From Campylobacter volucris (GTDB lineage Bacteria > Campylobacterota > Campylobacteria > Campylobacterales > Campylobacteraceae), in the NCBI RefSeq assembly GCF_008011665.1, contig NZ_VOWJ01000031.1, positions 1-64,000 on the forward strand: a stretch of DNA of 64,000 nucleotides, in the 5' to 3' direction. The notes under the pieces are model-generated. The model did no database searches, was not told where the DNA came from, and saw nothing but the letters and a program-made list of their open reading frames with translations. The position numbers were made by a program, and so were the translations under genes. The first letter of the stretch is position 1, and each line of letters starts with the position of its first letter. Positions 26,230-43,625 of the stretch are shown here, piece after piece.

Positions 26230-27217
26230 TATGCTTTTTAAGTATAGCAAGCCATTCATTTTTATTCATATCTTGCACTATATAATCAACAAATTTATAT
26301 TCTTTATTTTTATCTTTGCAAAAGATTATAACACAGGAGTTTGGATAATTCTTTTTGTAATTATTTAACATACTTTGTATTAATAATAAATCATATTTTA
26401 TCACTTCAAAATCAAGCAAAATTATTTTAAATTCTTCATCAAGCTTTTCTTTAAAATCGCTTATATACTCTACACTTTCATTATTTAGACAATATTGGTT
26501 TGCTAAATTTAAAAATAGTGAGTTTTCAAAAGAATTAGATTTAAAGATTAAAACATTTTTAGTTTCTTTATAATGATATGTGAAATGTTCTTTTGCTAGA
26601 TTGATAATGTTTTTTACATCAAAATTTTGAAAATCAACTTGTACGTAATTGTCATACTTTAAAAATTCTTTGCTTAGTATTAGCGTGTAATTTTCATCAA
26701 GATTTTCATAGGGTTTAAAAAATTTTGTTTGAATATTAAATTCTTGCAATATATTTTGGATTAAAAAATTTTCTAATTTATCATCGTTTAAAATAGCTAT
26801 CTTTGCATCATTAAAAATAATATTGATTTCTTCTTTAGGTATTTGATTTTGCAAAGTATATAAAAAATTAATATTATTATCTTTTTTTAAGTATTTAATG
26901 GCTTTTATGATTTGATTATATTTTGATTTTAAAAGATTATTTTTACTTGTGAGCATTTGCAATGAATCTTGTAATTTTTTATATTCATCGTGTTTATTTG
27001 CAAGATTATCTTTTAAATTTTTTAAGCTAAAATCATTGTTAAAATTAAATATATTATTGATTTGATCAATAAGCAAATTTTGATTTTTAAAAATTTTTCT
27101 TTTTATTAAAAAATAACAAAGCAAAATAATTAAAATACTAATGCAAATAACACTATAAAGATAAAAAAGATTTATATCTATAAAAAACAAAAAATGATAA
27201 TTTAAATACAAAAGCAC
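26216..27217 (-). CDS. membrane-anchored protein with coiled coil, unknown
   Basis: A 333-residue protein with two hydrophobic stretches near the N-terminus (about 2-14 and 18-38), a lysine/asparagine-rich coiled coil at about 60-115, and a C-terminal half of alternating beta strands. The last 70 residues ([20 protein letters not shown] to the end) look like a degenerate receiver fold without a clear phosphorylation site. GTG at 27217 is the first good start after uvrC, though the frame is open back to the uvrC stop. It lies 26 bases downstream of uvrC on the same strand. A similar membrane protein follows uvrC in C. jejuni. Function unknown. Confidence 0.75.
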
Positions 27218-34155: not shown

Positions 34156-34341
34156 GCCTGAATGGTTCGATTGTATCAAAAGGATCCAACACATTAATCA
34201 TTAGTTGTGATGTGTGATTTACCGTGTTCTGTGACTTTGTTTGAGCTTTTAAAAAAGCAAGAAGCTGCAGCCTTTAAAAATCATCTAACGACAAAATTTG
34301 ACTTTTTAGGGTCACATATTTATACTGCGGCCATTTGGGTT
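34156..34341 (+). ncRNA. ssrS: probable 6S RNA
   Basis: The 243-base gap between two genes holds a region of about 186 bases with the traits of 6S RNA, which binds sigma70 RNA polymerase by mimicking an open promoter. A TATAAT sits just upstream. The 5' end CCTGAATGG (34157-34165) pairs with CCATTTGGG (34331-34339) to close one long hairpin (9 pairs, two of them G.U). Inside, TGTGAC (34230-34235) pairs with GTCACA (34311-34316), and ACACAT/ATGTGT (34189-34215) forms a side hairpin of the central bubble. Size and single-rod shape fit 6S. I recall 6S being placed near purD in related bacteria, but cannot confirm. A different structured RNA or a purD leader is the alternative. Confidence 0.55.
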
Positions 34342-42975: not shown

Positions 42976-43053
42976 AAAGAAAAAATAAAACTATAGAAAG
43001 GAGATAGAGTTTAGTTAAAAATTTGTTTGGTAAGCCAAAGGGATTGTTCTAAA

Positions 43054-43069
43054 CCCTGCAAAAGCAGGG
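43054..43069 (-). terminator. terminator of the toxin mRNA
   Basis: On the minus strand CCCTGC-TTTT-GCAGGG forms a 6-pair GC-rich hairpin, followed by TTTAGAA, 6 bases after the TGA of the small peptide gene. Placement and shape suit Rho-independent termination of a transcript of about 145 bases. Confidence 0.7.
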
Positions 43070-43074
43070 GATAC

Positions 43075-43134
43075 TCAATAAGCCTTGACATAGCAAAGCG
43101 TTAAGAGTATAATTATAAGAACAATGTTGAGCAT
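43075..43134 (-). CDS. 19-residue hydrophobic peptide, candidate type I toxin (Ibs-like)
   Basis: The minus strand encodes MLNIVLIIILLTLCYVKAY and stops with TGA. The ATG is preceded by GGGAGGTGAG, which contains GGAGGTGA, eight bases complementary to the 3' end of 16S rRNA with proper spacing, the strongest such site in the window. The peptide is one hydrophobic helix with a short polar end, and equals in length (19) and in the final AY the Ibs toxins of E. coli, e.g. IbsC, with which it shares most of its aliphatic pattern. Hydrophobic peptides of this kind insert into the inner membrane and collapse its potential. A perfect antisense promoter lies inside the gene, a 5' hairpin precedes it and a terminator follows. 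Together these are the signs of a type I toxin-antitoxin locus; the toxicity is inferred. Confidence 0.7.
   Translation of the reverse strand: MLNIVLIIILLTLCYVKAY
43085..43113 (+). promoter_or_regulatory. perfect consensus promoter of the antisense RNA
   Basis: TTGACA (43085-43090), exactly 17 bases, TATAAT (43108-43113), all on the plus strand and inside the peptide gene that is coded on the minus strand. Full -35 and -10 consensus is rare in Campylobacter. Transcription would begin near 43120 and run across the peptide's start codon and Shine-Dalgarno. Confidence 0.85.
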
Positions 43135-43197
43135 TTAACTCACCTCCCTTCTGGGCGGTAAATTAACGCTAAAGGGTTGCACCCCTTTAGCGTTCAC
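43120..43197 (+). ncRNA. candidate antisense antitoxin RNA
   Basis: The RNA predicted from the consensus promoter starts near 43120. It is complementary to the first five codons of the peptide, its start codon, the whole Shine-Dalgarno (as CTCACCTCCC) and the leader, and ends in the 12-pair hairpin 43165-43194. Length is about 78 bases. The 3' end is not certain, because the tail after the hairpin (CACCCTTAAT) is only weakly U-rich. Pairing would block ribosome binding and make duplex for RNase III. This arrangement resembles IsoA over AapA in Helicobacter. Confidence 0.65.
43165..43194. other. 12-bp perfect hairpin shared by toxin leader and antisense RNA
   Basis: AACGCTAAAGGG (43165-43176) and CCCTTTAGCGTT (43183-43194) with loop TTGCAC. 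On the plus strand it is the likely 3' end of the antisense RNA. On the minus strand it would sit at the very 5' end of the toxin mRNA, where such stems protect and hold back translation in known type I systems. Confidence 0.75.
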
Positions 43198-43462
43198 CCT
43201 TAATACAATTACACCAAACAAACTCTTTAGCTTCTTTAATACAATTGATGAAAAGATTTTACATTTTTATTCCTTAAGTGCTTTAATTTTTACACCTTCT
43301 TTATTATTTGGTGTTACAAATATAGATGATAATTATATTATCTTTACTTGGGGCTATGGTGAAGTAGCAAATGATATTTTACAAGTTATAAAAGATGTCA
43401 TATCTTTGCTTCAATTAACTAATAAAAGTAGAGAATCTTTTCATATCAATGCTTTTAAGTAA
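43196..43462 (+). pseudogene. gene fragment without start codon, unknown
   Basis: This frame is open from about 43139 to a TAA at 43460-43462 but has no ATG/GTG/TTG with a ribosome site near its beginning. The part from about 43196 reads as protein (KLFSFFNTIDEKILHFYSLS, then IFTWGYGEVANDILQVIKD). It looks like the 3' part of a gene whose 5' end was lost. I do not recognise the family. The beginning of the frame lies over the toxin-antitoxin locus and is probably not coding there. Confidence 0.4.
43202..43207 (-). promoter_or_regulatory. possible toxin mRNA -10 element
   Basis: On the minus strand TGTATT (four of six consensus bases) would place the transcript start near 43195, immediately before the 5' hairpin. 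The -35 is poor. The surrounding 11-base TTAATACAATT occurs again at 43236-43246 (plus-strand reading), 36 bases away. Confidence 0.35.
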
Positions 43463-43625
43463 GATAGAGCTTATAAATATATTAGAAAGTTTAAGTTTAT
43501 ACAATCTTTCAACTTTAATGCAAACTATACAAAAAAGATATTTAAAACTAGAATATAACTTAAAAAGCTTTGATAAAGACAATATCTTTTTATCTAATAT
43601 GATTATGAATATGAGATTGAAGTAA
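43449..43625 (+). CDS. small ORF, unknown, at the island's right end
   Basis: An ATG at 43449 overlapping the end of the previous fragment in another frame opens 58 codons (MLLSKIELINILESLSLYNL and on to a TAA at 43623-43625). The product would be helical and polar, with no span or motif. No clear ribosome site precedes it, so it may be a translationally coupled small gene or the frame-shifted continuation of the upstream fragment. It ends 4 bases before the tRNA-end repeat. Confidence 0.35.
   Translation: MLLSKIELINILESLSLYNLSTLMQTIQKRYLKLEYNLKSFDKDNIFLSNMIMNMRLK

What the first reader, a model, noticed from the sequence alone, without database searches (positions are those of the whole stretch)
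43047..43207. Compact type I toxin-antitoxin locus: 19-residue hydrophobic peptide with an antisense RNA promoter inside it
Seen: a minus-strand peptide gene (43134-43075) with GGAGGTGA before its ATG, a 12-pair hairpin at the predicted 5' end, and a GC hairpin plus T tract 6 bases after its stop. On the other strand a perfect TTGACA-17-TATAAT lies inside the gene and points across the start codon and Shine-Dalgarno. Known: Ibs toxins of E. coli are 18-19 residue hydrophobic peptides ending in AY and are silenced by antisense Sib RNAs; in Helicobacter AapA/IsoA the antisense promoter lies inside the toxin gene. Inference: this is a type I module that pairs an Ibs-like peptide with an AapA/IsoA-like layout. 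I do not know of a description of this pair in Campylobacter. It is the one intact unit in a decayed island, as expected of an addiction module.
Basis: partly seen in the sequence, partly recalled or inferred. Interest (0 to 1): 0.93.

Follow-up and report, generated by a model that had tools for sequence, protein, structure and literature searches.

The report
AapA-style toxin–antisense RNA module in Campylobacter
This 170-base element very probably makes a 19-residue membrane-damaging peptide that is kept silent by an antisense RNA and by folding of its own mRNA; it is one copy of a large, unannotated toxin-antitoxin family carried by hundreds of Campylobacter conjugative plasmids, here surviving in the wreck of a conjugation gene cluster.

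Summary
Window 43032-43201 (minus strand) encodes MLNIVLIIILLTLCYVKAY behind a Shine-Dalgarno; a perfect antisense TTGACA-N17-TATAAT lies inside the ORF. It is not a chance motif. I collected 54 homologous copies with 44 distinct peptides, nearly all intact, every one with an 11-12/12 antisense promoter. The mRNA has a 5'-3' long-distance helix (95.5% of cells paired; 27 compensatory cells against 7.1 shuffled) that competes with a covarying 5' hairpin, plus a covarying helix between the ORF start and the 3'UTR. This is the anatomy of Helicobacter AapA/IsoA, but the peptide is unrelated to AapA1 and merely Ibs-like. A covariance model finds it in 37 of 399 Campylobacterales genomes (8 genera). 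About 300 Campylobacter plasmids match, mostly conjugative, pTet of strain 81-176 included; copies inside transfer operons are always antisense to them. In the window it lies between TraN and TraG remnants. As a kind it is known; from memory, Arnion et al. 2017 already reported similar systems in Campylobacter. Toxicity and transcription are inferred.

The parts
43032..43201 (-). Conserved unit = predicted full-length toxin mRNA (5' end about 43200-43196, 3' end about 43032)
   Evidence: Homology in distant copies starts and stops here (query 31/33-202); model R1 matches 1-203
43075..43134 (-). Toxin ORF, 19 aa MLNIVLIIILLTLCYVKAY, stop included
   Evidence: 44 distinct peptides in 54 copies, T at codon position 2 = 62% outside the promoter boxes
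43140..43147 (-). Shine-Dalgarno GGAGGTGA
   Evidence: conserved in alignment A1
43142..43159 (-). SD-sequestering hairpin ACC-G-CCC-AGAA-GGG-A-GGT
   Evidence: 78.6% of cells paired, weak covariation; RNAfold keeps the SD mostly paired
43165..43194 (-). 5' stem-loop, 12 bp, loop GTGCAA
   Evidence: 22 compensatory cells vs 7.6 shuffled, 0/500
43183..43191 (-). 5' arm of the 5'-3' long-distance interaction (GCTAAAGGG), shared with the 5' stem-loop
   Evidence: 95.5% paired, 27 compensatory cells vs 7.1, 0/500 shuffles
43034..43042 (-). 3' arm of the long-distance interaction (CCCTTTGGC)
   Evidence: also chosen unaided by RNAalifold
43118..43125 (-). ORF-start arm (ATTGTTCT) of the helix with the 3'UTR
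   Evidence: own-copy pairing exceeds all 5000 swaps
43043..43050 (-). 3'UTR arm (AGAACAAT) pairing with the start of the ORF
43054..43069 (-). 3' hairpin CCCTGC-TTTT-GCAGGG, not followed by a T tract
43208..43213 (-). Toxin -10 box, TGTAAT here, TATAAT in 40 of 55 copies
43085..43113 (+). Antitoxin promoter TTGACA-17-TATAAT inside the ORF
   Evidence: 12/12 in 35 and 11/12 in 19 of 54 copies
43120..43200 (+). Predicted antitoxin RNA, about 80 nt, covering start codon, SD and 5' stem-loop (ends inferred)
   Evidence: inference from promoter and hairpin; fold; IsoA3 is 80 nt (PMC6733600)
42367..42975 (+). C-terminal fragment of TraN (F-type T4SS)
   Evidence: Pfam PF06986, E=2e-28, profile 130-239/240; NCBIfam TraN
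43253..43399 (+). Remnant of the first 50 codons of TraG
   Evidence: tblastn
43455..43622 (+). C-terminal fragment of the 267-aa protein encoded just upstream of the module and traG on plasmids
   Evidence: tblastn

Best explanation
A type I toxin-antitoxin module built like Helicobacter aapA/IsoA. The minus strand is transcribed from a promoter just upstream of 43200 into an mRNA of about 170 nt. Its 5' end pairs with its 3' end, and the start of the ORF pairs with the 3'UTR, so the full-length mRNA is locked. Removal of the 3' end frees the 5' arm, which then forms the local stem-loop and makes the mRNA competent for translation. An antisense RNA of about 80 nt, made constitutively from the strong promoter inside the ORF, pairs with the 5' stem-loop, SD and start codon and blocks or destroys the activated mRNA. 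If the locus or its transcription is lost, the unstable antitoxin disappears first and the stable mRNA is activated; the peptide inserts in the inner membrane and stops growth. The family's usual carriers are conjugative plasmids and elements, which fits plasmid addiction. Shown here: ORF, SD, antisense promoter, conserved and covarying mRNA helices, homologues, genomic context. Inferred: both transcripts, 3' processing, duplex decay, toxicity, addiction. In this particular copy the toxin promoter may be weakened.
For: 54 copies, 44 distinct peptides (most 19-22 aa), about 84% hydrophobic, net charge +1 to +3, nearly all ending VKAY-like, T at codon position 2 = 62% vs 26% and 40% at positions 1 and 3 outside the promoter boxes. 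Antisense promoter 11-12/12 in all 54. LDI: 95.5% paired, 27 compensatory cells vs 7.1+/-2.0, 0/500, peak at slide 0. Local hairpin sharing the 5' arm also covaries, 22 vs 7.6. ORF start/3'UTR helix 0/5000. RNAalifold picks the LDI unaided. Model R1 finds full-length relatives in 37/399 Campylobacterales genomes and 1-6 copies on each of 17 examined plasmids. 301 plasmid records match, 260 of them conjugative. AapA1 loci from the H. pylori group show the same plan, with CCCCCATAAG at the 5' end and CTTATGGGGG at the 3' end. In seven related loci the module is intact while traN/traG are fragments.
Against: No transcript, translation or toxicity data were available. RNAfold of the window mRNA alone keeps the 5' stem-loop and pairs the 3' end with the SD region instead of the 5' arm, and the SD stays mostly paired even when the 3' end is cut, so the switch is supported by covariation, not by energy. 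No clear terminator for either RNA. The window's toxin -10 is TGTAAT. R1 does not match AapA1 loci over its full length, so common descent with AapA is not shown.
Confidence: 0.86

Rival explanations
1. A cis-acting antisense or attenuator element of conjugation operons: the conserved RNA structures and the strong plus-strand promoter regulate the downstream T4SS gene, and the peptide is incidental or a leader.
For: 29 of 29 examined copies that lie in transfer operons are antisense to the operon, so the 'antitoxin' promoter points at the next T4SS gene (annotations; positions).
Against: The peptide is under coding constraint outside the promoter boxes; copies exist away from T4SS genes (L137, L139); the ORF is conserved in chromosomal copies whose tra genes are wrecked.
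Confidence: 0.07
2. A small mobile element of the MITE kind with terminal inverted repeats, whose promoter-like and peptide-like features are hitchhikers.
For: Own-copy inverted repeats flank the unit (mean score 9.7 vs 8.0 shuffled, 0/2000); tandem and dispersed multiple copies.
Against: Repeats are weak or absent in several copies and differ between groups; a passenger would not keep the ORF, SD, antisense promoter and three covarying helices. No empty-site comparison was made.
Confidence: 0.04
3. The window copy (as opposed to the family) is a decayed, non-functional module: it has lost toxin expression and persists only because its antisense RNA or nothing at all is selected. This is compatible with the best explanation for the family.
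For: Toxin -10 TGTAAT instead of TATAAT; lies among pseudogenes; the only copy found in this genome apart from a self-match of its own palindrome.
Against: ORF, SD, antisense promoter and both arms of every helix are intact; an alternative TATTAA lies a few bases nearer the start site.
Confidence: 0.25

Closest known systems
aapA/IsoA (Helicobacter pylori; Arnion 2017, Masachis 2019)
   Same: About 80-nt antisense RNA with its -10 box inside the toxin ORF; 5' stem-loop; SD between stem-loop and ORF; 5'-3' long-distance lock; multicopy; same bacterial order
   Different: Toxin peptide unrelated: AapA1 is 30 aa, ends in KR and has a charged N-terminus; no AapA1 match in the Campylobacter genomes searched, and the new family's model gives no hit in the AapA1-bearing genus; mostly carried by conjugative plasmids
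ibs/Sib (Escherichia coli)
   Same: 18-19 residue hydrophobic peptide, C-terminal AY, antisense RNA
   Different: No Rfam Sib match; antisense promoter inside the ORF; 5'-3' lock; conserved VK before AY
hok/sok (plasmid R1)
   Same: Fold-back of the mRNA 3' end on its 5' end, activation by 3' processing, plasmid addiction (own knowledge)
   Different: Hok is about 50 aa; Sok does not start inside the hok ORF (own knowledge)
cjpT/CjrA (pVir, Campylobacter jejuni; Shen 2016)
   Same: Reported type I TA on a Campylobacter plasmid
   Different: Sequence not compared here; whether it belongs to this family is open

Membership tests
Type I toxin-antitoxin system | Small hydrophobic peptide with its own SD | tested here: met
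Type I toxin-antitoxin system | Antisense RNA transcribed over the translation start | tested here: inconclusive
   Promoter conserved in all 54 copies; no RNA data
Type I toxin-antitoxin system | Peptide toxic, antisense RNA neutralises it | not testable with these tools
   needs an experiment
aapA/IsoA | Antisense promoter within the toxin ORF | tested here: met
   IsoA3 precedent in PMC6733600
aapA/IsoA | 5'-3' long-distance interaction in the toxin mRNA | tested here: met
   covariation
aapA/IsoA | Peptide homologous to AapA1/AapA3 | tested here: not met
   AapA1 search hits only one genus, not the Campylobacter genomes
aapA/IsoA | Activation by 3' trimming and RNase III decay of the duplex | not testable with these tools
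   needs an experiment
ibs/Sib | Sib (QUAD) RNA family | tested here: not met
   no match with Rfam gathering cut-off or at E<=5
ibs/Sib | About 19-aa hydrophobic peptide | tested here: met
   resemblance only, no homology test is meaningful at this length

The most novel reading that the evidence does not exclude
The family is tied to conjugation: up to six modules are threaded through single T4SS operons, always antisense, so that transcription of the transfer operon itself makes extra antitoxin and silencing or loss of the operon arms the toxins. Transfer-gene activity and cell survival would be coupled through RNA alone.
Probability: 0.25. Interest if true: 0.78.

Novelty: new member of a known kind. 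Interest (0 to 1): 0.55.

Why it matters
About 300 sequenced Campylobacter plasmids, resistance plasmids such as pTet among them, match an element that is missing from, or overwritten in, their annotation; the 17 examined carry one to six full copies each. If it is an addiction module it would help explain why these plasmids persist without drug selection, and it gives a second toxin class to study the AapA-type mRNA lock. pTet of strain 81-176 has a copy and published dRNA-seq exists for that plasmid (PMC3656092), so the transcript prediction can be checked now.

Tried and rejected
3' hairpin as terminator: no terminator found, and conserved sequence continues past it. LDI between the outer repeats TTTGTTTGGT/ACCAAACAAA: these lie upstream of the conserved start site, so they cannot both be in the mRNA; kept as an unexplained inverted repeat (the first run used a wrong window). 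Rfam ctRNA_pGA1 hit at E=0.075: far below gathering, taken as chance. First motif pattern was miscounted and is ignored. The pattern ATTATA-N17-TGTCAAG finds generic strong promoters in all 49 genomes and cannot be used alone to count modules. SD pattern in viral contigs: 76 hits, too unspecific, not followed. No match in phages. Paper searches found no description of this peptide; Arnion 2017, Shen 2016 and the T1TAdb paper are not held.

Full report
What is there. The minus strand at 43134-43075 encodes MLNIVLIIILLTLCYVKAY behind GGAGGTGA, with a 12-bp hairpin at 43194-43165 and a perfect plus-strand TTGACA-17-TATAAT at 43085-43113 inside the ORF. The hairpin after the stop has only TTTAG behind it and is not a terminator.

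Is it real. A 231-bp query finds matches in 27 of 49 genomes of the genus, often several per genome and in tandem; a few of these are only the hairpin piece. The homology in distant copies starts and stops at about 43201 and 43032. Of the pieces gathered, 54 could be read: 44 distinct peptides, mostly 19-22 aa, starts ATG 34, TTG 16, GTG 4; two copies appear to have lost their start. Outside the promoter boxes, codon position 2 is T in 62% of cases against 26% and 40% at positions 1 and 3. The antisense promoter scores 12/12 in 35 and 11/12 in 19; copies were collected partly by that motif, so this count leans towards it. So both the peptide and the promoter appear to be under selection, although they overlap and the VK residues coincide with the -35 box.

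How the mRNA folds. On a 46-sequence alignment RNAalifold unaided chose pairing of the 5' GCCAAAGG with the 3' CCTTTGGC. For the nine-pair helix, 95.5% of cells pair and 27 cells are compensatory against 7.1 in shuffles (0/500), with a sharp peak at slide 0. The 5' arm also forms the local hairpin, which covaries as well (22 vs 7.6). Two mutually exclusive partners of one arm, both coevolving, is the signature of a switch. The start of the ORF pairs with the 3'UTR, again with own-copy specificity (0 of 5000 swaps). The SD hairpin is present but covaries weakly. The sequences are related, so shuffles that ignore the tree overstate significance; the slide control does not have that fault. Single-sequence folding of the window copy does not by itself prefer the 5'-3' helix and leaves the SD mostly paired in all forms, so the switch rests on comparative evidence.

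Relation to known systems. AapA/IsoA of H. pylori has a 30-aa toxin, an 80-nt antisense RNA whose -10 box lies in the toxin ORF, and a 5'-3' lock removed by 3' trimming (PMC6733600). AapA1 loci recovered here show the same order of parts and a 5'-3' complement. But the AapA1 peptide matches only one genus of 87, none of the Campylobacter genomes, the new family's model found nothing in that genus, and it does not fit AapA1 loci over its length. It therefore works like AapA/IsoA, and is not a member by peptide sequence. Ibs resemblance is in size and the AY end only; no Sib RNA match. From memory, the abstract of Arnion et al. 2017 says a search for homologous mRNA structures found similar TA systems in many Helicobacter and Campylobacter genomes; I could not read it, but it makes priority unlikely. 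CjrA/CjpT of pVir is a reported type I TA whose sequence I did not compare.

Distribution and context. Model R1 finds 37 of 399 Campylobacterales genomes in 8 genera; named carriers include C. jejuni, C. coli, C. gastrosuis, Helicobacter rodentium and H. mesocricetorum. A divergent query matches 301 plasmids, 297 of Campylobacter and 260 conjugative; 17 of 17 plasmids examined (chosen because they had a hit) contain 1-6 full-length copies, including pTet of 81-176 at 26402-26605. In the annotated transfer operons 29 of 29 copies run antisense to the operon (my count); the exceptions (L137, L139) lie elsewhere. The copies are related, so 29 is not a count of independent events. A simple reason is that sense insertions would express the toxin from operon promoters.

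The window copy. It sits between a TraN C-terminal fragment (PF06986) and the first 50 codons of TraG, where plasmids keep it directly upstream of traG. Seven related loci share these flanks with broken tra genes and an intact module. The toxin -10, TATAAT in 40 of 55 copies, is TGTAAT here, so the toxin may be poorly expressed in this strain while the antitoxin promoter is perfect.

Verdict. A real type I TA module of AapA-like design, one of a large unannotated family; ordinary as a kind, useful for its spread on conjugative plasmids. Transcription, toxicity and addiction remain inferred.

Noticed in passing
L054:249-297, L053:239-287, L057:271-300, L027/L028:1501-1543, L033, L034: In at least seven genomes of the genus a truncated end of this module (the 5' hairpin, in some with the CACCC and toxin promoter region) sits just after the stop codon of a gene whose end reads ...GQMAVFYDKDLVLASGFIK (MnmA-like, not tested), where it may have been taken over as a terminator.
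   Followed up: partly
L234:2445-3416 (pTet 81-176), L238:1945-2934, L233:1979-2920, L232:2934-4094: Annotated N-termini of T4SS proteins (VirB5-like, TrbJ, TrbG) run through the antisense strand of the module; in pTet the signal-peptide-like stretch starts only after about 73 residues, so the starts look over-extended.
   Followed up: partly
window 43225-43206 and 43033-43012, and other copies: Inverted repeats flank the unit outside the predicted mRNA and differ between groups yet match within a copy (0/2000 swaps). Unexplained: terminal repeats of a mobile unit, or conversion between the ends.
   Followed up: partly
L010, L038, L045 (G008:C1:977434-978360): Three tandem copies, period about 349 bp; each duplication carries the first 27 codons of traG.
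   Followed up: no
L237, L140: Five or six copies within a few kilobases of one transfer operon on C. lari and C. armoricus plasmids.
   Followed up: no
window 34212-34340: purD RNA motif (RF01069), E=1.5e-18.
   Followed up: no
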